64,000 nucleotides of DNA from Hydrangea macrophylla (taxonomy: Eukaryota > Streptophyta > Magnoliopsida > Cornales > Hydrangeaceae), in contig CM066988.1 of NCBI GenBank assembly GCA_033977485.1, positions 29,244,501-29,308,500 on the forward strand, in the 5' to 3' direction. The notes under the pieces are model-generated. The model was not told where the DNA came from, searched no databases, and saw only the letters and a program-made list of their open reading frames with translations. The position numbers were made by a program, and so were the translations under genes. Shown here piece by piece: positions 24,545-64,000 of this stretch. The first letter of the stretch is position 1; each line of letters begins with the position of its first letter.

Positions 24545-27500
24545 GTTGAGTTTTATTAGATATTGTTGTTTTTTCCTGAATATATATTTTATGGTTAGTA
24601 ACTTAGTATAGGGTCTTGCCTGTAATTACTTGTTCATTTGTTATTATAAATGAAGAGGTCTCACAGTTGTGAGATAAAGCCTTCAATAATATCTTGTTAT
24701 ACAATTCAAGACTTATGTGTATGTGCATTTGAGCTATTTGTTGTATAGGATCCAATACCCCTTGCCAGCTAGTGCACGTTGTTCGTTCATGTCTATAGTG
24801 AGGTTGGATCTATGTCACAACTTTTTCTTAGCTCAGTTTTCTTTTTCTTATTCTTTTTCTCTACTTTTGTTTTATTCTTTTTTGGTCTCTTTTTAATATT
24901 TTCTAATTTTTCGTATTTTCTTCTCTTAGTTTTTCTCTTGTCTAGGGCCTTCAGTATGAATCCGAATTTCCGACTTGGGTTCCTTCGGCATCTTCTGTTT
25001 CATGGACCACCCACATGGTCCCCTAGCACTCCGCCAAGAGAGGGAGAACGGTTGAGGAGTTATACTCCTCTATCAATGTCTCCATCGGGATAGCCAAGGC
25101 CCCCTCTTACTTGCACATTCAACTCATGGGAGAATCCAGACCCACTTGACGATGTTCTCGACGCTTTCCGACTTTTCTGGGATAGTGAACTATCAATTTT
25201 GGATTCCAATGATGAAGATTTGGCGGAGTCCTTCAATGATTCAACTGCGAAAGATGAAGTTATCAATTAAGTGGAATAGAGGCCCATTTCAGCTCTCTCG
25301 CGTTTTGATCATTCTTTTTATGGAGTTGAAATTGTAATCCAAGACAAAACGTTCTTGATTACTTTAAGTTTTATTTTTAGTTGTAATAAGGTCTAAGTAC
25401 CACGTTGGGGATGATTTTTGCAATTGGATGCTATAAAAATTTATATTAATGCATTTTGCAAACTTTATATTTTAATGGTGAGTTTTGTTTATCCTTGCAT
25501 ACTGTGAGCAGTTTGTTATTTGTTTTTCTATATGTAATGGATATGCTAGTTGAGGGTGAACAGGCATGTTAATACAGGGATTCTGGAATTTGTGTTTTCA
25601 ATCGATCGAACAATTCTTGATCGATTGAACTTTTGTTTTCTCAAGCGCTTTTTGTTTTCTCAAGCGCTTGGCAACATTTTGATCGCTTGCACATTCAATC
25701 AATCGAACTTTTTCGATCGTTTGACACTTGTTTTTAAACGACGCGTCCTTCAGAAGCTCCCTCACTTCTAAACCATTTCAAGCGATGGAGAGAGAGAGCG
25801 CTTGGGGCGATTTCTTCCATTTCCCTCGTCCAGACGTTCCCCAACATTCATTTCGGGTTATCATCCACAACTCATCATCATCACCATCCTCATCTCAGCC
25901 TCCTCCTGCACTCAAACCGAGGTAAGGTTCTCAAAGAACCCCTTATGCTTAGAATTTAGATAACGCGACAGTGCCCCCCATTGGTCTTAAGACCATTTAA
26001 TCCACGTCTGGGTTCTAATTTTTGAACCCTTTTCTCTCTCTTCTATGATTTTTTCTATCGATTCACAAATTTTCTGTGTTCGAGCGATCGAAAGGGTCTC
26101 AAGCGATAGAACTTGACCCAATTTCAATCGATCGAAAAAAGCAGAGTATGTTTTTGGCTTTCCTTTACTGTTTTTGCCTAGTCTCTTTCTTAGTTTCTTT
26201 TGTATTTCATTCTTCCAACTATCACAATGAATCCAATAACGGGCTATCACAAGGAAAAGCCCTTTGACCTCCTTGTCCCGGTCCCGGACCACAGCTTTCG
26301 GAATCCTCTTGATCAACAGTGGTACACCCGCTACTTCCAGAATCGTAAAGTCATGTTCGAGCGCCCTTTGGAGTCCGTCTGGCTCGCATCTCCATAGTTC
26401 CTAGCACACATAAGGCCATGCCGGCGATGCCGTATTGGTTCGATGTCCTCACTCAAGCCAAGAGGGTGAAAGTGTCATGGATTCGAGAGGCGTGTGCAAC
26501 AATGATCAAGGATCCCGCCACACCATTCACATATAGATCATTTTTCCGCGGTCGAGTGTTCGTCTTTAGCCCGGTCACGGTCGCTACTGCCTTGGGTGTG
26601 ACCGAGGTTCCCGACCGTGTTTATCCTCCGCAGCCTGGAGTTCTTGAGGTTTCTTTCTCGACGATTGCTACCAAGATCACTGGCGGAGCTATCACTGCAC
26701 GGACAGGATCTGCAGCCCTTGAGGACCAGTACCTCACGGACAACTATCATATGCTCCACTTGACCTTATGGAATTGCGTCCTGATGACACCTTACTACAA
26801 CACCTTGGCGCCATGGTACGCACAAGTTCTACAAGATCACTGGCGGAGCTATCACTGCATGGACAGGATCTGCAGCCCTTGAGGACCAGTACCTCACGGA
26901 CAACTATCATATGCTCCACTTGACCTTATGGAATTGCGCCCTGATGACATCTTACTACAACACCTTGGCGCCATGGTACGCACAAGTTCTATATGTTGTA
27001 GGGACGAGACAGAAAGTCTGCATGCTTCGTCTTTATATTGATTTCATAGTCCAACCCACGCGTCATGCTGCTACAAAGCGCCATGTGAAGGGCGCTAGGG
27101 CTATTTATCAGGTCATTGCCCAGACGATCAGGTCATTACCCAAACGGACCGTCTGGCAATGACCTAATGAATAGTGTCAGACGAACCGTCTGGGCAATGA
27201 CCTGATGAATAGTGTCTGTCTAGGCAATGACCTAATGAATAGCCAGCCAAAGTGCCCTTTAGATGGCGCTTCGCAGCAGCATGATATATGGGCTGGACCA
27301 TGAAATCAATATAAAGACGAGTCAGGCAGACATTCTGTCTCGTCCCTACAACATATAGAACTTGTGCGTACCATGGCGCCAGGGTGTTGTGGTAAGATGC
27401 CATCAGGACGCAATTACATAAGGTTAAGTGGAGCATATGATAATTGTTCGTGAGGTACTGGTCCTCAAGGGCTGCAGATCCTGTTCATGCAATGATAGCT

Positions 27501-30428
27501 CCGCTAGTGATCTCAGTAGCAATCGTCGAGAAAGAAACCTCAGGAGCTCCTGGCTGCGGAGGATAAACACGGTCAGGAACCTCAGCCACACCCAAGGCAG
27601 TAACGACGGTGGCCGGGCTAAAGACGAACTCTCGACCGCGGAAAAATGATCTGTATGTGAATGGTGTGGCAGGATCCTTGATCATTGTTGCACACGCCTC
27701 TCGAATCCATGACACGTTCACCTCCTTGGCTTGAGTGTGAACGTCGAACCAATGCGGCATGGCCTTCATGCGTGCTAGGAACCATGGAGATGAGAGCCAG
27801 ACAGACTCCAAAGGGCACTCGATCATGACTTTACAGTTCCGGAAGTAGCGGGTGTACCACTGTTGATCAAGAGGATTCCGAAAGACGTGGTCCGGGACCG
27901 GGTCCGAGACAAGGAGGTCAAAGGGCTTTTCCTTGTGATAGCCCGTTATCGGATTCATTGTGATAGTTGGAAGAAAGAAAAACAAAAAAATCTAAGAAAG
28001 AAACTAAGCAAAAACAATAAAGGAAAGCCAAAAACCGATTGAGAATTTTCGATCGATTGAAACTGGGTCAAGTTCAATCGCTTGAAACCCTTTCGATCGA
28101 CCGAACACAGAAAATTTGCGAACTGACAGAAAAAATCACTGAAGAGAGAAAAAGGATCATAAATAAGAACCCAAACGTGGATTAAATGGTCACAAGACCA
28201 TAGGGGGGTCCACCAGTGTTTGTCTTCCATTCATTTTTTCTAAGTCTCTTTTTTTCTTTTGTGCATGTTGACCAAAACCCATCTCTTTGTCCCCCCCTCC
28301 ACTAGCTTTAAAAACGAGGGATCACTTTTAGAATTTTTTTTTGGGTTTTCAATTGCACCCCAAAAGCTTTCCTATTTTTTTAGTAAGACCCCAATCTTCT
28401 GTGAAATTCAGATATGTCGCCATATTTTTTAAAATGACCTTTTTGTCCCAAATATTTTCAGAAATTACAAAATTGCCCTCAATATTTTTTCTGAAATTCC
28501 AAATCTGCCCCAAAAGTTTCTGATTTTACAAATTAGTCCCAGTTCTTTTTAAAATTTCAGATTTTTTTTAAAGCCATGTTTGGATTTGAGCTTTATTGGG
28601 GTTTGTTTCTTATGTTTTCCAAACATCGATCTTCGTGTTCACTCTCACCTTCAATTTGATGGGAGAATATAAGGAGACAGGACCGGGTGACGAGACCCAA
28701 GGAGGGGGGCCGCTATATCACACGAGCGACGAGACCACCCGAACAGGGACTCGCTACACCACACGGATTGGTGAGTTTGAACACACAACCCCTCTTCAAT
28801 TTGAGGGGGAGTGCTAAGACAACTACCTCTATTTATGTGACAAGCGATGGATTATTCAGTGGGTACATCTCACCTAGAGCTTTGGATGTTTGTATGACGA
28901 GACCACCTAAGAGGAGCCGCACGTGGACCACCCAAGAAGGGCTTGCACGTGGACGAGAGACTACCTAAGAGGGGCCGCTACAACAGTCTACAAGGTGGAG
29001 TTTTAGAGAGGATAGTTCGATATAAGATTGTCTTCCATATTCGTGTGCAAGTTGGACACTTCAACAAATATCTGTGTGCCAACTTGAGGGGGAGTGTTGG
29101 AAAAATATAAGTAAATATAAATAAATCCAAAAGATATTCCAAAGAGAGAAATCCCAGAATATTCTAGAAATCTCCAGATTTATTTGATTTAAATTGATAT
29201 GATTGTAATCATAGGAGATTTGATCTTATCTCTAGGTTTCCTATTTTATATCTCATTCTCACCCTATATAAAGGGTTGGAAGCATTGTAAAATAATTATC
29301 CCAGTAAAATACAATTTCTCTCTTCTATCTTCTTCTCCATTTTCCCTTTTTCTCTCTCTCTAAACTTCCCTCTACAAAACAGAGGACCCTCTTTTCTCTT
29401 CAAAGCACAGACAAAACCAAGGAGCGACCACCTCTAGCCGGCACCAAACAAATCTGCACAGATCCGGCAACCCCCTTATTGCCATGAGAGACCACCAGAA
29501 GTCAAGCTGCTGTCTCCCGTGTTGCGTCGACAACACCCATGCCTTGCCGAAACTCGCCAGAAACCAGGATCCCACCAGAGCGCCTTCTACTTCTAAGAGG
29601 CCATGAACTAGATCAGAATCATTCTCAAAAATCCATAAGAAGTGATCCCATTTTTTTCATCGGGAATGTTGCACCAAGTCAGGCCACCACGGCAGAACAA
29701 AGGCGGCAAATAGGGTTTCTTCAACCCCCTCCCCCCTCCCCCCCCCCCCCCCCCCCCCCCTTTTTTTTGGTTTAAAAACTCTCAACCTCAGATTTGGGTT
29801 GACTGAAAAATCTAGAAGATGAAAAGGTTCTAGTAACACGGAAGTCCCGGCGGGTAGCGGGCTGCCACCCGCCGATGGTGGTGGTGGTGGTGGCTGTTTT
29901 GTAAACCCTTACTAGGGTGGCTCTGATACCATGTAGAATTTTAGAGAGAGAGAAATTGTATTTCACTGGCATAATTATTTTACAATGCTTCAACCCTTTA
30001 TTTAGGGTGAGAATGAGAGATAAAATAGGAAACCTAAAGATAAGATCAAATGTCCTATGATTACAATCACATCAATTTAAATCAAATAAACCTGGAGATT
30101 TATAGAATATTCCTTGAAATCATCAACCGATTGGGGCCTCAGGGAATAGAACCACTGCGTAGCTGGGCCCTTTAGAGTGCTAGGTCTGGGATTTCTCTCT
30201 TTGGAATATCTTTTGGATTTATTCATATTTACTTCTATATTTTCCAACAGGAGGCACCCCCTCTCGTTATCGAAATCCTAAGCATAGGGGGTTCTCTGAG
30301 AACCTTACCTCAGTATGAGTGCAGGAGGAGGCTGAGATGAGGATGGTGATGATGATGAGTTGTGGTGGATGATAACCCGAAATGAACGATGGGGGAATGT
30401 CTAGAAGAGGGAAATGGAAGAAATTGCC

Positions 30429-50863: not shown

Positions 50864-53349
50864 AGTCGAGAGAGAGAAGAAGAAGAAGAAGAAGAAGAAG
50901 AAGAGAATAAGAGAAAAAAAACGAGGAACTTCAACCTTTGGTTTGTGTAATCATCATCAACCTTGAAGTCCTAAATTGGTGAGTTAACTTATGATTTTCT
51001 TTCAATCTCATTTGATTGAAATTTAAATGGATAGAATATTGAATTAGTATGGTCATGAATTTATGAGATTTAGGTTTTCTTTTTTAATGATTGAAGTTGT
51101 GATTTGAGATTTATAGATGAGTCTTGAATATACATTTGAGCAAATATTCAATTTTTGGGTTTGAGGTTTTCACGGATTAGATATGAGTAGAAAATTCATA
51201 ATAAATCATATGTTATAGTTTTCGTGATTCTGTTCACGTAGGCCTGTAGGAAACGCAATTCTGGACAACTTTTGTTTAATGGTGTTTTTCCCAATTCTGC
51301 ACCATTTGGGCAGAAAATGCATATTACAGTAGCAGTTTTATGAAAGTTAAAATAAGCGTATTTGCTACATCATATTTTTGTGTGATTTCGTGCTCGTTAA
51401 TATAAATTAATTTGTTTGTACTTAGAGAGATATGAGTTCTCATGTATAGTTGAGCTTTGTGACATTGTGACTGTGTGATTTTGTGTGGGTTATGAATCTG
51501 TGTGAACATGTAGCTGTTAATATGATTTTTAACGGATATTTGATTTGAGATACATGAATCTCTTACAAAATTGAGTTTTGTGAAAAATGTGGATGTATGA
51601 ACGTTAGAAAAGTCCTTAGAGTTCACCACTGCTCCTTATGATTTTAGGCGGTGACTTCGTAGATGACCCGTCCTTGTGTGATTAGACGGCGACTACGTGG
51701 ATGACCCGTCTCTTCATTTTTAAGCCTTATGCCCGGCTTGTTGGTCTATTTCATGTGTATTTAGATATTGTTTATCGACGTCAAGAACCTAAGGACTAAC
51801 CTTTCGGTGTATACTCAAATCCCAGTCATACCCCATGGGAGTTGGGACTGGAGTGGGAGTTAGTATTACGTTAGGAGACACATGGGATATATGTGTAGGC
51901 TGGACCATGGATGGGTGGCCGAGGTGGTGAACATAAGGTGTAATAAAAGAAAATAATTTGTGGTGTTTTATTCTTGCGTTTAGAAGTTTGAATAATTAAT
52001 TACCTATTGATGTAGTAGTATCGTAGAAAGTTGTGGATGCTTAGTAATCGACTTTTCTAATAATTTTTCGTGTTGTAATCATAGTGTGTGAGCGTGAATG
52101 TGATAACCATAGACTGTGTTAAGTTTTGGATTATGTTTGGAGGATTTGATGCGAGTATTTTATGAATTTATTCTGTTACTGAACTATGGGTTTGATGGTA
52201 GTTTGACTGACTCTTGAATTGTAACGGACATTAATTCATAAAGTAATTGTGGGTGTATTTAGAACTGTGATAATTAAATTTTACAGGATGGTGGGCCCAC
52301 TAACTTTTATGCAGGACTGGCTCACCATAGATATTCGATGGGTAAGTATTCTATTGGTATTATTCGGGTTGGGAACCACTGCCACCACATTGAAGGAAAC
52401 TACCATTCTGTCCTAAATGTGCGAGGAACTACTGTTCTAACCCGACATGAATTATGTGTGATGACATTGTTTATTTTCTGTGCAATGATATTGTATGATA
52501 TGAGGTGGTTATGTTTTTCTTTGTGAGTACTTTTGGGAATCTGTGGGACACCGTCGTTCCCTAAGACTCGTTTTATATTTTTTTGTTAACTCATACCAGT
52601 ATTTTATATACTGACCCGGATGCGTAATGCATTCGGGGCGTTTCTATATAAAACGTAGTCGAATGTATGTGCAGGTTTAGTATTTGGAGATTTTCTTTGG
52701 AGCTTCTATTTGGTAAAGAGATTGTCGCAGTGTTGTTTATTATTAGAGTTGTACTTATTTTTTTTGGTACTTTATTTTATTTCTGGCAGTGTGGGCCACA
52801 AGTGTATAATTGTAATAAGGATTATATATTGGGTATTGGGAACATTGTAGTTGCTTTGACCAATGGATGTATAGATTTTATGCTTATTTATTTTCTTTCC
52901 GCTGAACTCTGTAAAGAGGGCTTTATTGAATGAACATAATTTTTCTTTTGTAAATCGAAAGGATATAATATGTGGAATGAAGTTTAATTTCTTTTATAAT
53001 GAAAATGAATGTTTGGGAATTCAAGTTTAATAATAAAGAGTTTTTTTTTTAAACACAAAATCACATGTCCTTATTTAATGAGTATAAAATACTGTTTTCA
53101 ATAATTATCTATTAGTCTGTGTGAGGGTGTCACTCTCGGAGTTTTGGAAATTGAATATTAGTCTGGATACATGCTCTGGATTAAATATTTGGTTGTCCAA
53201 AAATCGGAGTATGACAGTTTAATACTATTTTTAATAATTATCTATTAGTCTGTGTGAGGGTGTCACTCTCGAAGTTTTGGAAATTAAATATTAGTCTGGA
53301 TACATGCTCTGGATTAAATATTTGGTTATCTAAAAATCGAGGTGTGACA
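50375..53349 (+). mobile_element. LTR B2 (gypsy-type), followed by a primer-binding-site-like sequence
   Basis: TGTAACAACCC at 50375 to GGTGTGACA at 53349. It matches solo LTR B1 over most of its length (e.g. 52287-53216 with 47995-48933). The last 133 bp are duplicated in tandem (ends at 53216 and 53349). It is followed by gtttgggatcagagcgg (53350), close to the TTTGGTATCAGAGC primer site of many plant retroelements. Confidence 0.8.
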
Positions 53350-53734
53350 GTTTGGGATCAGAGCGGAAACCCAGCCGGAAGTGTAGGGCGAGTCCCACAC
53401 AAGGACGTGTGGCCCTTAAGGAGGGTGGATTGTGATGACCAAGAGCCAATACTCCTGAGGCAGGATGACCAAGACGGATGAGGTGAGGTCTGGTGTGGGG
53501 ACTTGTCCCACATCGCCTGGGGTGAAGTTCCTGGACTAGTTTATAAGGATTAATAGCCCCTCTATATGCAACAAGGCCTTTTAAAAACGTGAGGGAGCTA
53601 AACATGAAAGAACTTCACAGTTAAGCGTGCTGCTGCCAGAGCAGTATCAGGGATGGGTGACCCCCTGGGAAGTTCTTTGTGTTTAGGCCCAAAGCGGACA
53701 ATATTGTTGCTAGATGGGGAGGTAGGTCGTTACA
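53350..53734 (+). mobile_element. Cassandra-like TRIM: internal domain and 3' LTR
   Basis: After the primer-site-like sequence come only about 80 bp of internal sequence, then a purine tract (aaggagggtgga, about 53416-53427) and an LTR-like stretch (from about 53428) with tcccacatcgcctgggg, a tttataagg box and a 5S rRNA-like block, ending ggtcgttaca. Cassandra TRIMs are non-coding plant elements known for 5S sequences in their LTRs. The 5' LTR is missing; LTR B2 stands in its place. Confidence 0.7.
53612..53686 (+). ncRNA. 5S rRNA-like segment within the Cassandra-like LTR
   Basis: Matches the 3' two-thirds of plant 5S rRNA: gaacttcacagttaagcgtg (5S has GAACTCCGCAGTTAAGCGTG), then agcagtatcagggatgggtg and accccctgggaagttct. 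Box A (AGTTAAGCGTGC) and the box C core (GGATGGGTGACC) of the internal polymerase III promoter are intact. The region between them has small changes. It is a retroelement-borne copy, not a ribosomal gene. Confidence 0.82.
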
Positions 53735-53975
53735 CTACGGTGGCATCTCAGCATCATCATAGAACTCAATACTCTTTTTTGAATGAAACACGAGACCCGA
53801 CCGACATATATGAATATATGATCATTTCATCGTTAATGTTATTACGACTATTGCATCATCTACTGACGCGCGTGGTACTAGTCGTTGATGCGCATTAACA
53901 TCCAATTACCATTCTTGTACTTATTATATAATTATCCCTAAAGTTTACGTATCTCACATGTATACAACTTACAGG

Positions 53976-56900
53976 TGTGGACCGTCGCGAATGGAGGAGG
54001 AGGTCCTGACGCTCTCCCTCGATAGTGTCCCGGGACGGATCCCAAGGAGCACACTTCAGGGAAAACTAGGACTTCCTCACGCGATCCTAGAGACAAAGAG
54101 TCGCCACCTAATTTTTATCGGGAATTAGGAAACCCAAGTTTGACTCGCCCAAAATTGAATAAGGTTACTCGCCCTTCATTACCAGAAACAAGGTTCGGGG
54201 GTCTTGGTACGAGAGGGGAAGGAGCCCAAGCAGGACTAAAGCACCCCCTCCTCGCCCTACCGAATGGTAGGCCTTGATTCAAATATCCTTGTTATTAATT
54301 CATAATAGATGTTGTTTCCTCAAACATACTAGATAGGTATATACATGGCAAAAAGAAACATCTAATGAAAATCATTTCAAGAGACTAAATCAAGTAGAAA
54401 GCGGATGCTCATGCAACACAAGGGAGAAGTATACTCACAGTGGCTAGTCCCGCCCGGGACCGATGCAAAGAAAGTAAACATGTCATGATATGCAAAGGGA
54501 ACGAGAAGACTTACATTGGTTGACTCAAGCGGAGTCGCGAAAGCAAAAAGAATGTAAACGTGCAATGCAATCATGCAACAATCCTAGATAAGATGTCTCT
54601 AACAAATAATCATATAAACGGAGACTTATCCTAAAGGAAATGTGTCGTTGAAATCAAAGTTGTAAACCTAGAAAAATTCTAAGAGAAAGGATAGAGATAG
54701 TACATGATACATGGGCACTAAGCCACATGTAGACGAGGCAAACCACAAATCGAAGTCCGGGTCCGAGGCACTTAATTCTCTGCACTAATACACCAAAGAA
54801 TACCCAAGCATTGCAAAAATACAAGCAAACAAATGATATGCATGATAAACAAAGAAAACATGTCATCAATCAAATTTCCAGATTCAGCAACCTCTAATGA
54901 ATCCTATCAAAAGTGGTCTTAAACATGAGCTGGGTAAAAACCCTTTTACAGAAAGTTAGATACATGTCTTAGGGAACTTCTCCAAAAAGTGGGACCTCAA
55001 TATCAATTTTATTGTTTGAGAAATAAATGTTTTGGGAACAGTGGATCAGGACTGTCCACTGTTCTTGTAAAAATCATAATTAAATCTACAAAAATCATAT
55101 GAAGCTCTATTTGGTGTCAAAAGAAAGCTATTTCATTGTAGTATATGATAAAAATAAACCCATGGACATTCTGTAATCACAAGGTTTCTGAAAAAGTGTT
55201 TTAAACAGACTCTGTTATTCTGGAAATTTGGTATCATTTGACAAATGAATGCAAAACATAATAGAAGTATAATAGAAGTTCATGAATCATGTTAACCAAG
55301 TTGATTTAAGCTTTTGATCTCTCATCCATTTATCCTAGGTGATTTCTAAACCAAGTTTTATTCATCAATTGTTGTTGAGTGATCAAGGTATGACCATTTT
55401 GTATACATAATCATATTTGTAATTAAACTTAGAAAATTCCAGAATAGTTGTATCAACTTTAAACGCTTAGAAAACGATCCTAACTCGATCGTATGCTCAC
55501 GATTTTACATCGGCATATAGATATATGAGTTAGGAATCATCCCCAAAAAGCGGAACGTCGATAACTATTATAGATTTTCTGAAATTCAAGCACAAAGAGA
55601 CGATGTTCAAATCTGTCAACCGATTTCTCAACAATTTCTAAAAATAGTATATGAATCCTAAAAGCTCTCAAAACGGACCGGATGAAAGCTAATTCATCAA
55701 AGTTTACCCAGAAAATTTGAAATCCATCAAACTATGGGTTTTGATGGACCAAATCTAATGGACAAAACCAATCTGCTTTGCTGAATTTTTATCTAGTTCA
55801 TTTTAAAGTGTGAGGAAAACATTTTAGTGATAGTTGAAGCTTATTAGAGAGATCAAACTCATAGATCAACTTAATTATCATGATTCCCAATCAATTTAGC
55901 CCTCAAGTTCTATGAAGAACTTTTAGATCAAGGATCAAAGGGACTTATAAATATCATGTTGGAGATGAAATTCAATAGGAATTCTAGGTAATAGGAATAA
56001 TCAAGAGATAGGTATGAACATAGAAATCATCCTTCTCATAGATCATATTTCCAAACCATCATGGAATTCAAAATAAATATATGTATATATATATAATCAT
56101 GTATGCATGAATCTAAACTAAAATTGAAGAATGAAACCAAAATTGAAAATCAAAGTGAAAAACAATCTCTAATTGTAAATTATCAATAAAAATCAAAGAG
56201 ATTTGGATCTAACTATGTGAGTGTGTGAAGAACATGAGAGGAAGAAGATGAGTGTTCTAATAAGTAGAAATAGAACTAAGTTAGATCCAAATCTTATAGA
56301 TCTATATATACAAAGTAGGAATTAGAGATGAACTATAGTGTTTACCTCTTGGAGGATTCTCAATTACAAGACCAAAATTGATTTGAAGATCTTCTTCTTC
56401 AAGTGTTATTCAAGTGTTCTTCAAGCACTCATCCATGGAAGTTGAGGGAGGCAATTGATGTTCAAATTGTGGTCTAATTAGCCTAAGTTAATCTAAATTC
56501 AATTCATAATTTTCTCTCTCTAGAATTCACCTAAATTGAAAGTATATTCAAAGTATACTCATCTCTCTTGTATGTGCTTCTATGTGTGTTTGTATCTCCA
56601 AGTATATTCAAGTGTATCTCTTCCAAGTGTCTAGTGTGTTAAGATGTGATCTCATATGAGATGTATGAGATCTTATATAGAGTTTTGAAGACTTAGCTCT
56701 TAAGTTTCAGGGTTAAAACAGGATTTTTAGAGCTTAAAAGAGGGTTAAAATGGCCATTTCGGAGCCTAAACGCAATTTCCAGGCAATTTCCTCGCAGTGG
56801 GAAGCTTCTAGAAGGGTCTGGAACTCAAAAAGCTCCGTGGAGGACACAAATGGAAGTGGCGGTTATGGTGGGACCCGCCACCCCCATACCCAAAACCGCC

Positions 56901-57465
56901 ATTTACTATTTGGGTCCCTCTGGTCACCCACAAGCTCTGTTTCAAATTTCATGCGCACTGCTTTTCCAGATTTTTGTAAAAATGCTTTTTGGTGTCCGAA
57001 ATCGTCCGTTTACGTACCGTTGGAAAGCTGTCAGGTTGAATTTCAGTATAAAAATATTTCCAGAGGTTTTATAATGAGAATTGAAGTCCAATTGAAGTCC
57101 GGAAGTCCTCCGGAACTTTCGTCGTCTTTTTGAAATCAAATGACGTCTTTTCCAAAATTGCTTTCAAATGTGCGTCGATTTCGAACTTTTCTTTAAAATT
57201 GAATCTCTGGATACCTAGAATACTGCGTTTAGAACACTTAATGTTCATATAACCCTGAGAGAATATGAATTCTGAGAGATGATTTTGACAAAACCGGGAT
57301 TTATCCATGGAAAAGGGCTTTTCTGAGCTTGAAGTCACTTTCCGAAGTCCGATCTTCTGATTGTGTGGAATCCAGTACCTTCCACGGGGTACTTTTCATC
57401 ATCGAATCCTCCAAGACGTTGTCCACCCTAAATCCTATCAGTGTGGTCAAAATTGGGTGTCTACA
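53976..57465 (-). mobile_element. Tat/Ogre-type Ty3/gypsy 3' LTR (about 3.5 kb)
   Basis: On the minus strand it begins TGTAGACACCCAATTTTGAC at 57465, the start typical of Tat/Ogre LTRs, preceded by purine tract aaagaggggcaaac. Near 54090-54120 the minus strand reads ttaggtggcgactctttg, also characteristic of this lineage. A TG at 53976 (plus) is the likely outer end, not proven, since the other LTR is outside the window. No ORF of note. A GC-rich hairpin region lies at 56855-56910. Confidence 0.7.
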
Positions 57466-57481
57466 GTTTGCCCCTCTTTGG
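57466..57481 (-). other. Tat/Ogre element polypurine tract
   Basis: Minus-strand ccaaagaggggcaaac abuts the TGTAGACACC start of the LTR. The junction 12-mer ggggcaaactgt recurs elsewhere in the element (see 62952). Confidence 0.75.
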
Positions 57482-58063
57482 CAGAGCTTGTTGTGAACAA
57501 CGTGAACTGCAAGTGAGTGCCAAAGCCTTGAAGGCACCCAAATAACCATACTGAGAGGTTTTAGGAAAAACAAAAAATTCGCAAAATCAAGAAATTCAAA
57601 ATCTGAAAAAAAATCAAGAAATTACAAATGCAAGAATGCAATGCAATGCTGGGTAGAGGCGGCTAAGTTGAAGCTGATGCTGGTCGTGCTCCGCTGGAGC
57701 TGCCTACGTATCCTTTCCAGGAATCAGACCAGGGCGTAGTTCAAGCGCGCGGGAAAACGGAAAACAAACAACAACAATGCGGATGAAATGCTCCTATCCT
57801 AGGATGCTGGTGCAGTATGAAAACATGAAATGTGAAAGTGCTGGAGGAATCATCCTCAAGGGTTCCCTAGATGCAAAATCTAATGCAAAGGATGCAACGA
57901 CTCTCTCTCACAGTCGAATATGCTAAAGGTATCTTGGATGATTCTCGAGGTTTTTGTCAAAGTTATTCTTCTGATCTTAAGGCTCGTAGGCGTCATCTGT
58001 ATCCTGGACGACTCTTGAAATAGCGAAGTATCTTGGATGAATTCTGAGTCATGTCAAACAACT
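57482..58063 (-). other. Tat/Ogre 3' untranslated region, LTR-proximal
   Basis: Non-coding. It contains gctgcctacgtatcctttcc with aatcagaccagggcgtagtt (57695-57740), a motif type repeated near 63100 and 63210 in the same element. Confidence 0.55.
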
Positions 58064-58672
58064 GGACGATTGCTGGTGTAGAGTCCTTCTGCTGGGGACG
58101 ATTACTGATGTAGAGTCCTTCTGCTGGGGACGATTGTTGATGTAGAGTCCTTCTGCTGGGGACGATTGCTGAAATAGGTCCTTCTTCTGTGGACGATTGC
58201 TGATGTAGAGTCCTTCTGCTGGGGACGATTTGCTGATGTAGAGTCCTTTTGCTGGGGACGATTGCTGGTGTAGAGTCCTTCTGCTGGGGACGATTGCTGA
58301 TGTAGAGTCCTTCTGCTGGGGACGATTGCTGAAACAGGTCCTTCTTCTGTGGACGATTGCTGATGTAGAGTCCTTTTGCTGGGGACGATTGCTGATGTAG
58401 AGTCCTTCTGCTGGGGACGATTTGCTGATGTAGAGTCCTTTTGCTGGGGACGATTGCTGGTGTAGAGTCCTTCTGCTGGGGACGATTGCTGATGTAGAGT
58501 CCTTCTGCTGGGGACGATTGCTGAAATAGGTCCTTCTTCTGTGGACGATTGCTGATGTAGAGTCCTTTTGCTGGGGACGATTGCTGATGTAGAGTCCTTC
58601 TGCTGGGGACGATTGCTGATGTAGAGTCCTTTTGCTGGGGACGATTGCTGATGTAGAGTCCTTTTGCTGGGG
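58064..58672. repeat. Tandem array, 32-bp unit, about 19 copies, with higher-order structure
   Basis: The unit reads ggggacgattgctgatgtag then agtccttctgct. Variant monomers (gctgaaataggtccttcttc, tgtggacg) recur at about 58171, 58331 and 58523, i.e. every five or six units (160 and 192 bp), showing amplification of blocks. Long ORFs across it arise because the unit lacks stops in several frames. Confidence 0.92.
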
Positions 58673-58870
58673 ACAAATCTTCTGAAACAGGTCTCTCTGC
58701 CGGAGACAAATCTTCTGCTCTTCTGAAACAGGTCTTTCTTCTAGACAAATCTTCTGTAACAGGTCTGGAAACAAGTCTTCTGAAACAGGTCTCTCTGCCG
58801 GAGACAAATCTTCTGTTCTTCTAAAACAGGCCCTTCTTCTGAGGACAAATCTTCTGTTCTGATGCACGGA
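58673..58870. repeat. Short tandem array (acaaatcttctg units)
   Basis: Irregular repeats of acaaatcttctgaaacaggt and tctctctgccggag between the two larger arrays. Confidence 0.7.
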
Positions 58871-59410
58871 TTCTGAGAGATACACAAATTCTGAGAGATG
58901 ACCCTTCTTCTGAGAGCAACCCACGGATACACGATTCTGATTTTGAGAGAAACCCTACATTCTGGAGGCAACCCTGATATGCGATGCTGAGAAATACATG
59001 ATTCTGAGAGAAACCCTACATTCTGGAGGCAACCCTGGATACACGATTCTGATTCTGAGAGAAACCCTACATTCTGGAGGCAACCCACGATTCTGAGAGA
59101 AACCCTACATTCTGAGAGCAACCCACGGATACACGATTCTTGGCATAAACCTTGTATTCTGGAGGCGACCCACGATTCTGATTCTGAGAGAAACCCTACA
59201 TTCTGGAGGCAACCCACGATTCTGAGAGAAACCCTACATTCTGGAGGCAACCCACGATTCTGAGAGAAACCCTACATTCTGGAGGCAACCCTGGATACAT
59301 GATGCTTGGCATAAACCTTGTATTCTGGAGGCGATTTTGATGCTCAAATTCTGAGAGATACCCTTTATCTGGAGGCAACCCGTGGATACATGATGCTTGC
59401 GAGAAACTTA
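58871..59410. repeat. Tandem array, about 38-bp unit
   Basis: The unit gattctgagagaaaccctac then attctggaggcaacccac repeats about ten times, with some variant or truncated units carrying ggatacacgattct or ttggcataaaccttg. Confidence 0.88.
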
Positions 59411-60294
59411 ATTCTGAAAGTTCTCTACTGGGGAGATCCTATGATTCTAAGAGATGCACGAATTCTGTTATACCTTGACAATATCTGGAAATTCTCTGCT
59501 TGAGGAGATATCTGAGGTTTCTGGGACGCGAGCACATATTCTGGAGGCCCTGCTGATTCTTTCTGAGACTCATATTGGTGCTTCGACCAACGCAATCATT
59601 CTTGCAACACGTCAGGCTTACTCTAACCCTTTCTGAACATCTCGCATTCTGACCCATCTTCTGAAAGTCCTTTCTGGATGTAATTCTCAAGCGACAGTAG
59701 ACTCAAATGTCCATTTTCTAAGACAACTCATAATCAATCCCAAAACGACGGGAGTTTGCCGTTTCTCGGCCACTTTCAGGCTGCGGTGCCTTTGATTCTT
59801 CTCATCTGGGGGACTTTTTTCAATTCTTGAATGGATTTTTACCAAGATTCAAATCTCCAGAGGTCCTCTAGACCAATTCCAACAAGTTTTAAGCACTCTC
59901 AAGGCTTATATATCAAAAATGGACCAATCCGGGATCAAATCAAGAGTTCCGGGGGTCAAAACGCGAATATAGAGCAAAATGGGGAAATGGCAGGAAGTGA
60001 ATAGTAAATGGCGGTTCCCCACACCCCCTTGGGAACCGCCAGCCGCAACTTTGGGGTTTTAAACCCATTTTCTTCTTTGTTCTTCATTCATTTCTTCTTC
60101 AATGCATCACCTCTTCCTTCTAAGGTGCTCAAATCTTGCAATTTCTTGATGTTTTGAGTGATTTCTTGCATTAAAACCTCCAAAAACTTTGTTGATTTCA
60201 TCAACTCCTCCCTATTCTAGGGGATTCAAGTACCAAGGTTTTTACTATTCATCATCTTCAACCTCTTATCTTCAAGCTTCAAGCATCAACAACC
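59411..60294 (+). promoter_or_regulatory. Upstream region of the PMD gene
   Basis: Contains a hairpin at 60010-60041 (ggcggttccc ... gggaaccgcc) and the 17-mer aatagtaaatggcggtt (60000-60016), which is also present inverted in the LTR at 56894-56910. Downstream is an unspliced-looking, CT-rich leader to the ATG at 60295. No clear TATA box. Confidence 0.45.
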
Positions 60295-62422
60295 ATGAGT
60301 TCCCATGGACAAGGTGAAAGTTCTAGAACACGTAGAAGCCAATTTCAAGCTAGTGGAGCTTCATCAACTCAAACCATGGAGTATGCAACCATGAAAAATC
60401 CACTAAATCATATCTCTAGGAGGGCCTTTCGTCAAGAGGTAACCCATTCTTTAATTACTCCTTTGTTTCACATCTTCATACGTGTCTCTTTATTCTTGCG
60501 ATTCCTTAGAAATCATCCTTTTTCTTTTTAGAATGTGGTTGGTCATCTTAGAGGTCATGGTAGCCATGGAAAATGCCTTGAATGGTTTAATGAATTGTCG
60601 GAGTCGCGTCCCCAAGTAGTAGCCAATATCAAGCAAGCGGGCTTTGGGTCGTTTGTAACCTTATTGGAGAGATCGACTAATGATTTGGCCATGATTCAAG
60701 CTCTTGCTGAAAGGTGGTGGGATTCCACAAATACTTTTCACATGCCTTTTGGGGAGATAACCATGACCCCTCTTGATTTTGCAATGATAACCGGCATCTC
60801 ATTTGGCGGGCATCGTCTTGCCTTTGCAAAGAACATCCATAGACATCCTACTATCATTGAGCGTCTCCTAGGCATCATCCCATCCCAGAGAGATCTTCAC
60901 GGATCGAGCGTAGGCATCACATGGTTCATCAACAACTTCAGGCCTTCTGAAAGAGCGGCTCAATTTACCGATATGCAGCTTACCCGTGCTTTCATCTTGT
61001 ATTTGCTTGGTTGCTCTCTTCTTTCTACTCGAGCTGAGCGGATTACATTGAATATGCTTGATAGTCTTCGAAATCTTGAGGAGATTGCAGATTTTGATTG
61101 GGGCTCTGCTGGTTTAGCCATTCTGTATAGTCATATGGGGGAGCATTCTCGAGGCAAATCCCCTGGATTCGGCGGATTCTGGAGAGCTTGGGAGGTACTG
61201 AAAATATTTTCATTTCCAGTTTTTATCATTTGATGTTCTGCTGTTTTGACCACTGCTTTATTTTCTCTTGTAGGTGTGGGCCTTTGAGTATTTCTCCATG
61301 ACGGCTCCATCATTCCGGGAGGAAGAGATTCATATTTTTCCACGGGCTTTGAAGTGGCGTCGCCAAGCCGTAGGTACCAAGAATGATGCTCATAATGTTA
61401 TTTCTTGCCGGGATTTTCTTACCCGTCTCAGATTCAACCAAGTTAACTGGCATCCTTGGGCTACAAATGGAGATGTGACTGAGATTGGCTTAGCTAGACA
61501 GATGACTGGAGAGAGGATTCTTCTTGAGGGTCCCTCTGTTCTTGAGTGGTATCTTGGAGAGAGAGTAGCTCCTCAGACTGATTTGGAGGATCGTCTCTTA
61601 GTGCCACAGGATCCGCCTTCTTGTATGAGGTCGGCGCAGAATTTGGAAGATGAAGATCTTATTAATGCTTTGAACGGAATTCCTTCAGCCTCTTTTACTC
61701 TGTTTGAGGATAACTATGACGTCTTCAGGGTTACTCATCTGATGCCTAATTTCCCGCTCTCGGATGACCCGCAGGTATTTCACGACTTCTTCATTTCTGA
61801 TCGAATGCTTGCTTTATCTTATTTCTCATCATCATTTGCAGGGGAGTTCTTTTGTGGATGGCCCTGGTCGACCTCTACCTCTCATTCCTCCTTGTGATTG
61901 GCGAGCCTCGACCATGCTGCGCGGAGTTATATCTTCTGTAGAGATCCCCCGTGATCTTGTAGAGCCTCAGCTAGTTTCAGAACAACATGAGTCCGTTCCC
62001 CGAGCCGTTTTCAATGAAGAGCGAGCTTATGCACAGAATCTGAGGGCTTGGAGCCTTGCTCGTGAGGGACATGTAAGTAATTTCTGAACTCATTACCTCT
62101 GATTCTTCTGATCTTTCTGACCATATCTTTCTTCTCTTTGCAGTGGGATGGCATGTGCCAGACTTACATAGACCGTGATGCGGCCCTGGTAAATTTCTTG
62201 ACCTTTTCTTCTTATCTCATTGCTTTTTCAAACCCCTATACTGATTCTTTTCTTCCACAGGTGGCTCAAGTTAGGCAGCTTCAATCACAGTTGGAGCGGA
62301 TGAATGCAGGCCCTTCTGGTGGGGCTGGTGGGTCTAGGCGAAGGCGCCAAATTGAAGATGATGATAGCTCTACGGCCTCAGATATGCCTGCTCGGTACCC
62401 ACGGGCTACTCGTCGTCGCTGA
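60295..62422 (+). CDS. Plant mobile domain (PMD) protein, six exons, antisense within a Tat/Ogre element
   Basis: Exons are 60295-60438, 60532-61194, 61274-61774, 61842-62072, 62144-62188 and 62261-62422. Each is a multiple of three and bounded by GT-AG, so all five introns are phase 0. The join gives 581 codons plus TGA with no internal stop. The protein has a Ser/Gln-rich start (MSSHGQGESSRTRRS) and a PMD core with FHMPFGEITMTPLDFAMITG at about residues 117-136, then TRAFILYLLGCSLL and WGSAGLAILYSHMG. A second region opens WAFEYFSMTAP, and a basic tail ends RYPRATRRR. PMD proteins (aminotransferase-like, PP7-long-form relatives) act in silencing in some host copies and also ride in transposons. 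Here the gene lies between integrase and 3' LTR on the opposite strand, like the antisense extra ORFs known in Tat lineages. Expression cannot be judged. Confidence 0.85.
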
Positions 62423-62940
62423 TGATGATCATATGCACCCATGACTATCTTTCTGTTTTTCTTGCTTTCTGTGCTGAGACTGATGTTGATGTATTCTGTC
62501 TGAGACTTGATGGGCTTGTACTCTTGACTTTGCTTGATGCTGCTTTATGCTATCCTTCTGTTTCGCTTTGCATCCCTTGTCACGAGACTGATTTGATTGA
62601 CACTTTGCACACTGACACACAGGACTCGATTTTACAGGGAAAGGAAATTTCTGACGATTCCTCTTTCTCGACAATGTCTTTTGACTTGGATATTTGAATT
62701 TTCTAAGGATTTGCATGTTTTGAAAATGAGATTTTATCTTGTAGCAGGATATTGTGTTGGCTTTGCATGTAATCTTGAAGCTTTTGAAAATTTTCCACAT
62801 AATGTTTCAGTCTTGACATTAGATTCACATCTTTAGATTGCTAAAAAACTTTTCAACTTAATATCAAGAATTACCAGATTTTTCACTTAGGTGCTTTAAT
62901 TCTGATAGCCAAGTGATCCAGAGAGGACAGGTAGCGAGGT
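62423..62940. other. 3' flank of the PMD gene, non-coding
   Basis: Probable 3' UTR of the PMD gene and untranslated sequence of the retroelement. No supported ORF on either strand. A distinct polyadenylation signal was not identified. Confidence 0.45.
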
Positions 62941-62942
62941 AT

Positions 62943-63062
62943 GGGCAAACGACAGTTTGCCCCTAGTTGATAGAGATAAATGGAAGTTTGGGCAAACGCA
63001 GTTTGCCCCTAGTGTGGCAGTGATATCTTGAGGCTTTGGGCAAACTTGAAAGTTTGCCCCTA
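62943..63062. repeat. Three GGGCAAAC...GTTTGCCCCTAG hairpins
   Basis: Three inverted pairs of gggcaaac and gtttgcccctag occur near 62943-62966, 62990-63012 and 63038-63062. In element-sense orientation each contains ggggcaaact, matching the polypurine tract/LTR junction at 57463-57474 (12 of 12 bases in the first copy). Confidence 0.85.
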
Positions 63063-63292
63063 GTTTGAAAGGTTCAGGGATCGAGAGCCAGGAAAGCTCG
63101 CCTACTTATCCCCAAGTGGGAATCAGATCCAAAGTAGTTCGGCCAGGTCTTGAAAGAAAGTATGGTTGAGGGTTTCAGGAGCAGTGACCGAACCGAGCAG
63201 GTTGCCTACATATCCCCAAGTGGGAATCAGGTCAAGTGTAGTTCCTCAAATGCTGGAGGTTTTGAAAGAACAGGTTTTGAAAGAAAAGGCTT

Positions 63293-64000
63293 TTAAGCAT
63301 AGTATCTCTTGAGACGGTCAATGTTGATTGGCTGATTGAACTCAACTCCATCTAGATCCATCAGGTATGCCGCTCCTCCAGAGAGAAGCTTCTTGATGAC
63401 GTATGGGCCAACCCAATTTGGCTTGAATTTCCCTCTAGGATCGAAAACGGGTGCTTTTAAGGCTTTAAGCACAAGGTCGCCTTCCTCAAGTTTTCTTGGA
63501 CGGACCTTCTTGTTGAATGCTCGAGCTATTCTTCTCTGATACACATGCACATGATCAATTGCGGCCAACCTTTTCTCATCAAGTAACATTAGCTCCTCAT
63601 ATCTATCTCTTAGCCAATCAAATTCTGGAATCTCGGATTCTGCCACAACTCTCAAAGATGGTAGTTCTATTTCAACTGGGAGTACTGCTTCCATTCCGTA
63701 AGCCAATGAATAAGGAGTGGCTCCTGTAGATGTTCGGATAGATGTTCTGTATCCCCACAGTGCATACGGTAACTTCTCATGCCAATCTCGGTATGTATCA
63801 GTCATCTTTCTTAGGATCGTCTTCAAATTCTTATTAGCTGCTTCAACTGCCCCATTTGTTTGTGGCCTATACGGCGCTGACATGTGGTGCATGATCTTGT
63901 ATTCTTCTAGTAGATCCAAAACCTCTTTCTGGAAGTGACTGCCGTGATCGGATATCAACTCATGAGGGACCCCGTATCGGCAGATTATATTTCTTCTGAT
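63293..64000 (-). CDS. Tat/Ogre-type gypsy integrase, C-terminal part (runs off the window)
   Basis: The frame is open from the window edge to TAA at 63295-63293 (235 codons visible). It starts CRYGVPHELISDHGSHFQKE, with the second catalytic aspartate of the DDE core in SDHGSHF and the glutamate in TNGAVEAANKNLK. The RTSTGATPYSLAYGMEAVLP block is diagnostic of plant Ty3/gypsy elements of the Tat/Ogre branch. A C-terminal DNA-binding part (DLVLKALKAP ... PNWVGPYVIKK) ends RLKRYYA. There is no frameshift or stop, so this element is better preserved than the copia copies. The first catalytic aspartate, RNase H and reverse transcriptase lie beyond 64000. Confidence 0.92.
   Translation of the reverse strand: MRRNIICRYGVPHELISDHGSHFQKEVLDLLEEYKIMHHMSAPYRPQTNGAVEAANKNLKTILRKMTDTYRDWHEKLPYALWGYRTSIRTSTGATPYSLAYGMEAVLPVEIELPSLRVVAESEIPEFDWLRDRYEELMLLDEKRLAAIDHVHVYQRRIARAFNKKVRPRKLEEGDLVLKALKAPVFDPRGKFKPNWVGPYVIKKLLSGGAAYLMDLDGVEFNQPINIDRLKRYYA

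What the first reader, a model, noticed from the sequence alone, without database searches (positions are those of the whole stretch)
60295..62422. Intact six-exon PMD gene carried antisense in a Tat/Ogre retrotransposon
Seen: six exons, all introns phase 0, 581 open codons, on the strand opposite to the integrase at 63293-64000 and between it and the 3' LTR. Known: Tat-lineage elements can carry extra antisense ORFs, and PMD domains occur in transposons. Inference: because the gene is antisense, its introns are invisible to splicing of the element's sense RNA, so an intron-containing host gene can pass through reverse transcription unchanged and stay intact. Symmetrical phase-0 exons would also make it robust to exon gain or loss. 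A captured silencing-related gene could influence host control of the element.
Basis: partly seen in the sequence, partly recalled or inferred. Interest (0 to 1): 0.88.

Follow-up and report, generated by a model that had tools for sequence, protein, structure and literature searches.

The report
Five-intron antisense gene in a retrotransposon
A young, high-copy plant retrotransposon carries, on the strand opposite to its own proteins, a plant-mobile-domain gene predicted to have five introns; lying backwards likely lets those introns escape splicing when the element copies itself through RNA, and the protein shows purifying selection between two related families.

Summary
DNA beyond the window shows a complete 21.07-kb element: 5-bp target duplication, 3.49-kb LTRs with 7 substitutions, one open gag-to-integrase frame, and the Tat-type second RNase H. 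A 30-base PMD stretch occurs 354 times in the genome. In 12 of 12 copies read (all chosen for holding that stretch) the gene has the same place and orientation and all ten splice dinucleotides; 7 of them lost the start codon through one shared 428-bp deletion. Four diverged PMD families keep the donors of introns 2 and 3 in phase 0 (4 of 4); one pair of them gives dN/dS 0.05. A tree places the gene in a repeat-associated PMD clade, so recent host-gene capture is not supported. PMD in Ogre elements and antisense ORFs in Retand elements are published; the conserved multi-intron antisense structure, and three hairpins resembling the 3' polypurine tract at the pol-PMD border, I did not find in ten searches of open-licence papers. 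Splicing, expression and function are untested, orientation in the diverged families is inferred for one and unknown for three, and whether PMD-free copies exist did not complete.

The parts
60295..60438 (+). PMD gene exon 1 (predicted), start codon at 60295
   Evidence: missing its start in 7 of 12 copies read
60532..61194 (+). PMD gene exon 2, first half of the PMD domain
   Evidence: identical protein in 150 of 150 scored places
61274..61774 (+). PMD gene exon 3, second half of the PMD domain
61842..62072 (+). PMD gene exon 4
62144..62188 (+). PMD gene exon 5
62261..62422 (+). PMD gene exon 6 with stop codon
60439..62260 (+). Five phase-0 introns (60439-60531, 61195-61273, 61775-61841, 62073-62143, 62189-62260)
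   Evidence: all ten splice dinucleotides kept in 12 of 12 copies
59907..59912 (+). Candidate TATA box of the antisense gene (consensus match only; five ATGs lie between 59935 and the start codon)
63293..64000 (-). Integrase end of the gag-pol frame, which continues beyond the window
53976..57465 (-). 3' LTR, 7 mismatches and 5 gaps against the 5' LTR
57466..57481 (-). 3' polypurine tract next to the LTR
   Evidence: position and sequence; function inferred
62943..63063 (-). Three hairpin units whose arm repeats the core of the 3' polypurine tract
   Evidence: three units in 12 of 12 copies and in the diverged locus L043
63100..63244 (.). Two copies of a short module also found at 57702 next to the 3' tract
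58064..59292 (.). Tandem-repeat arrays between the PMD gene and the 3' LTR

Best explanation
This is an antisense accessory gene of a young Tat-lineage LTR retrotransposon: a PMD gene, predicted to be spliced from five introns, whose introns likely survive each round of reverse transcription because they are unreadable on the element's own RNA, and whose protein likely acts in the nucleus on expression or silencing of the element. Shown: the gene, its place and strand, the complete element, 354 copies of a PMD stretch, donor positions of two introns conserved in four families of 42-52% identity, and purifying selection between two of them. Inferred: transcription from a promoter of its own on the opposite strand, splicing, and protection of the introns by orientation. 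Least certain: what the protein does; I favour action in trans on element expression, because the host PMD proteins MAIN and MAIL1 act in silencing and because a subfamily without the start codon has multiplied.
For: Six exons, 581 codons; PF10536 E=7.4e-41. Complete element with target duplication and near-identical LTRs and open gag-to-integrase frame. Same place, orientation and splice dinucleotides in 12 of 12 copies. 354 exact 30-mers, control 0. Phase-0 donors of introns 2 and 3 in 4 of 4 diverged loci (the intron 3 donors were read by eye from that output); insertions at the intron 2 position in two annotated homologues, P0014 and P0021. dN/dS 0.05, bootstrap 0.03-0.07, for L044/L045 over 340 codons. 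TE-type PMD clade. MAIN/MAIL1 act in silencing (PMC5418596, abstract passage).
Against: No RNA evidence. Only a single consensus TATA match and five upstream ATGs before the start codon. Seven of 12 copies share a deletion of the start codon, yet that subfamily multiplied. Among recent copies substitutions look neutral: 30 nonsynonymous, 2 stop and 4 synonymous singletons against 3.3 to 1 sites, in a sample biased towards changed proteins. Only one pair of families gives an unsaturated dN/dS. Orientation relative to pol is inferred for L043 and unknown for L044-L046. Acceptors of the diverged families were checked only for intron 2 of L043. No function was tested.
Confidence: 0.55

Rival explanations
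1. The antisense transcript itself is what matters: it would pair with the element's RNA and feed silencing or damp copying, and the protein is secondary.
For: Antisense position next to the 3' LTR; reviews propose dsRNA effects of antisense ORFs (PMC7264820, passages; PMC12786077, passages). A subfamily without the start codon multiplied.
Against: Purifying selection on the amino-acid sequence between two families and a kept 581-codon frame across five introns point to a protein.
Confidence: 0.15
2. A host gene captured recently by this one family, carried as passive cargo.
For: Host-type PMD genes and spliced introns exist; introns are typical of a host gene.
Against: The clade of the window PMD holds the other repeated families of the genome and multi-copy proteins of three other genera, apart from the other PMD types tested; intron positions and selection reach into diverged families.
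Confidence: 0.06
3. The PMD block is a separate mobile element nested in the retrotransposon.
For: Short modules repeated on both sides of the block could be an insertion scar; MULE elements with PMD genes occur in this genome.
Against: 12 of 12 copies share the arrangement; the PMD does not group with the MULE PMD rows; the repeated modules lie in direct order beside a polypurine tract. At most this describes an ancient origin.
Confidence: 0.08
4. The hairpin array at the pol-PMD border is a regulatory or termination structure, or an old duplication scar, and not an internal primer site.
For: Strong fold of the sense RNA, z -4.46, 0 of 200 shuffles; modules duplicated at both ends of the block.
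Against: The arm that repeats the 3' tract is the same in the window and L043 while loops differ.
Confidence: 0.5

Closest known systems
PMD-carrying Ogre elements (PMC6317226, section 13 read)
   Same: Tat element; PMD (pfam10536) extra gene, reported in 57% of Ogre elements
   Different: That survey predicted single ORFs of at least 250 codons with getorf; here the gene has five introns, lies antisense 3' of pol, and gag-pol is one frame instead of two
Retand elements with antisense ORFs (PMC11963269, abstract, passages and Discussion read)
   Same: Antisense gene and tandem repeats between pol and 3' LTR; single gag-pol frame is common there
   Different: Their domain is mostly TRP28; 'intron' and 'PMD' do not occur in that text
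PMD-A1/A2 clades of Gypsy PMD proteins (PMC5418596, section 11 read)
   Same: PMD encoded by Gypsy elements across angiosperms, distinct from genic PMD
   Different: Reference sequences were not in hand, so placement in A1 or A2 was not tested
HTLV HBZ and the lentiviral central polypurine tract (HBZ named in PMC11963269; splicing of HBZ and the central tract recalled)
   Same: Works like: antisense gene in a retroelement; internal copy of the 3' polypurine tract
   Different: No sequence relation; here three hairpin units share about 9-13 nt with the 3' tract, downstream of integrase, and priming is untested

Membership tests
Tat lineage of Ty3/gypsy | Second RNase H; between RH and INT in angiosperm elements | tested here: met
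   RVT_3 at 350-468, between RT_RNaseH and rve, in the third pol piece; criterion from PMC6317226 section 13
Tat lineage of Ty3/gypsy | RT phylogeny with reference elements | not tested
   no reference RT set in hand
Ogre | gag-pro and RT-RH-INT in two ORFs separated by an intron-like stretch | tested here: not met
   one open frame from gag to integrase
Ogre | Primer binding site complementary to tRNA-Arg | tested here: inconclusive
   site starting TGGCGACTC three bases after the LTR; its assignment to tRNA-Arg is recalled and was not compared with tRNAs
Retand | Antisense ORF with TRP28 (PF04195) between pol and 3' LTR | tested here: inconclusive
   PMD found instead; the other small ORFs of the region were not scanned
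PMD-A (Gypsy-encoded) | PF10536 above the curated cut-off | tested here: met
   140.9 bits against 34.9
PMD-A (Gypsy-encoded) | Groups with Gypsy PMDs, apart from genic and MULE PMDs | tested here: inconclusive
   13-row clade 100/100 with the repeated families, but no reference PMD-A row, and the window row has a long branch
Central polypurine tract | Internal copy of the 3' tract that primes plus-strand DNA | not testable with these tools
   sequence copy shown; priming needs a biochemical test

The most novel reading that the evidence does not exclude
A long-lived clade of plant retrotransposons keeps a true multi-intron gene by carrying it backwards: orientation alone shields five introns from splicing through countless reverse-transcription cycles, and an array of three hairpin copies of the polypurine tract starts extra plus strands at its border, so that the gene for a silencing-related PMD protein is copied as a protected module.
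Probability: 0.2. Interest if true: 0.82.

Novelty: new variant of a known kind. Interest (0 to 1): 0.62.

Why it matters
Retrotransposons normally lose introns when they copy themselves. An antisense gene whose intron positions hold in families of 42-52% protein identity would show how they can keep split genes. Surveys based on long single ORFs would undercount such genes. A PMD protein under purifying selection inside a recently multiplied element makes the idea of element-encoded interference with PMD-based silencing testable.

Tried and rejected
Led nowhere: viral contigs held no relative (3 stretches matched a pattern, none confirmed). The profile search returned 16 proteins, all already found. 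AlphaFold of P0001 was poor (mean pLDDT 43.0), so no fold search was run. PDB sequence matches were weak (best E 0.078). Of the genome's best PMD matches I fetched 20 loci of 10 kb (L011-L030): none of the 20 matched this element's pol or integrase at E 1e-5. I scanned ORFs of six of them with Pfam: MULE domains in L011, L022, L024 and, below its cut-off, L030; L016 was labelled MULE in the tree only because it resembled these, without a MULE match of its own. Selection among recent copies was uninformative. Rfam had no match at gathering threshold in 53000-64000. The second module in L043 is seen only as 9 letters cut by the end of the locus. The window pieces for the module tests were picked after seeing the matches.

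Rows left out: P0023 from alignment A1 (22 of 23 used); P0009, P0014, P0015, P0020, P0021, P0022 from A2 (17 of 23 used); the tree used 12 of the 33 proteins found and 14 segments of the genome, none dropped by the script. In one search exon 3 of L046 was not found and not used.

Never answered: the count and pairing of an integrase 30-mer, which would show whether PMD-free copies exist; the machine was busy each time (first, last).

Full report
Observation. The product is a PMD protein (PF10536, E=7.4e-41). Twenty-three homologues, in Rhododendron, Prunus and Camellia, have 25-38% identity. In two of them, P0014 and P0021, the annotated protein has an insertion exactly at our intron 2, as if the intron had stayed in the gene model. 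No RNA was examined.

The element. DNA beyond the window holds the second LTR. The element runs from window 53976 to the position equivalent to 75047 (21,072 bp), with ACAGG on both sides, LTRs of 3490 bp, and 7 mismatches plus 5 gaps between them. With two commonly used rates (recalled) this is about 77,000-143,000 years. One open frame carries gag, a G-patch domain, RT, RNase H, a second RNase H-like domain and integrase. This fits an angiosperm Tat element; the single frame speaks against a typical Ogre, so Ogre or Retand is left open.

Copies. An exact 30-mer of exon 2 occurs 354 times (control 0). All 150 places scored, of 11,278 candidates, encode an identical exon 2 (only the best are scored, so this is a capped list). 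I read 12 further copies on contig 1 that carry the 30-mer but were not among those 150. In 12 of 12 the gene lies in the same place and orientation beside the integrase end, with all ten splice dinucleotides. Four of 12 keep the whole frame without stop, gap or insertion (L038, L039, L041, L042). Seven of 12 (L031-L037) share one 428-bp deletion, 59977-60404 at a 4-nt repeat, which removes the start codon but keeps the TATA-like site. Among these copies the singletons in the gene are 30 nonsynonymous, 2 stop and 4 synonymous against 3.3 to 1 sites: no sign of selection after insertion, in a sample biased towards changed proteins. Since all were chosen for holding PMD, they cannot show whether PMD-free copies exist.

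Deeper families. A degenerate pattern for ALAERWWD[ST]T, with one of the window's codons excluded, matched 2,080 places (control 0; 100 listed). I read four (L043-L046). Their best PMD matches have 42-52% identity to the window, their later parts 32-41%. A phase-0 donor follows exon 2 in 4 of 4 and exon 3 in 4 of 4 (the latter by eye); an acceptor was located only for intron 2 of L043. L045 (stop codon, LTR end just upstream) and L046 (long insert before the end of exon 3) are damaged copies. L044 and L045 differ by dN 0.074 and dS 1.51 (ratio 0.05, bootstrap 0.03-0.07, 340 codons). The other six pairs have pN 0.27-0.39 and pS 0.75-0.89; dS is infinite in five and 4.4 in one, so they give no usable ratio. 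L043 and L044 have a second ORF with DUF7745 matches after the PMD gene. No integrase was found in the 4 kb read of any of the four.

Phylogeny. In a tree of 26 exon-2 segments the window falls in a 13-row clade (100/100) with the four genome families, seven proteins of Rhododendron, Prunus and Camellia, and P0024, apart from MULE-type, 'phosphatase 7 long form' and single-frame PMDs. Inside the clade its place is unsure (81/73) and its branch is long. This agrees with Gypsy-specific PMD-A clades (PMC5418596 section 11) and argues against recent capture of a host gene.

An unexpected feature. Between integrase and PMD lie three hairpin units whose arm repeats the core of the 3' polypurine tract; GTTTGCCCC occurs four times in 64 kb, once at the 3' tract and three times here. 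A second module occurs only at 57702, 63100 and 63204. The scores of the 3'-end pieces in this spacer were reached by 1 of 1000 (module) and 0 of 1000 (tract) shuffles; the best of 244 other tiles scored 23 and 21 against 28 and 28. All 12 copies keep three units. L043 has three units in the same orientation to PMD with different loops; the composite was absent from 507,800 other strand-bases. L043 ends in nine letters of the second module. L044-L046 end before that place. I infer that PMD is antisense in L043 too. The sense RNA folds well (z -4.46, 0 of 200 shuffles). Two readings remain: extra plus-strand primers, or a scar from the acquisition of the block. Conservation in a diverged family favours a function.

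Known or new. PMD in 57% of Ogre elements (PMC6317226, section 13) and antisense ORFs in all surveyed Retand clusters (PMC11963269, abstract and passages) are published. The review PMC7264820 (passages) asks that antisense spliced transcripts be looked for. I call it a new variant of a known kind.

Noticed in passing
L031-L037 (window equivalent 59977-60404): A shared 428-bp deletion with 4-nt microhomology removes the PMD start codon in 7 of 12 copies read: a subfamily that multiplied without it.
   Followed up: partly
L043:2274-3329, L044:2749-3888: Other PMD families carry a second ORF on the same strand with DUF7745 matches (and weak PMD matches) right after the PMD gene.
   Followed up: partly
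L011, L022, L024, L030: Other PMD genes of this genome lie near MULE transposase domains (L030 below cut-off).
   Followed up: partly
L009:2256-4355 (minus strand): A G-patch domain (PF01585) lies inside gag-pol between gag and RT; such domains are reported in Gypsy elements (PMC9289625, passages).
   Followed up: no
window 53360-53740: By eye a stretch resembling a 5S-rRNA-like terminal-repeat element (Cassandra type, recalled); Rfam gave no match at gathering threshold.
   Followed up: partly
window 26150-28153: Large imperfect palindrome with arms about 90% complementary; ORFs on both strands match Transposase_32 below its cut-off.
   Followed up: no
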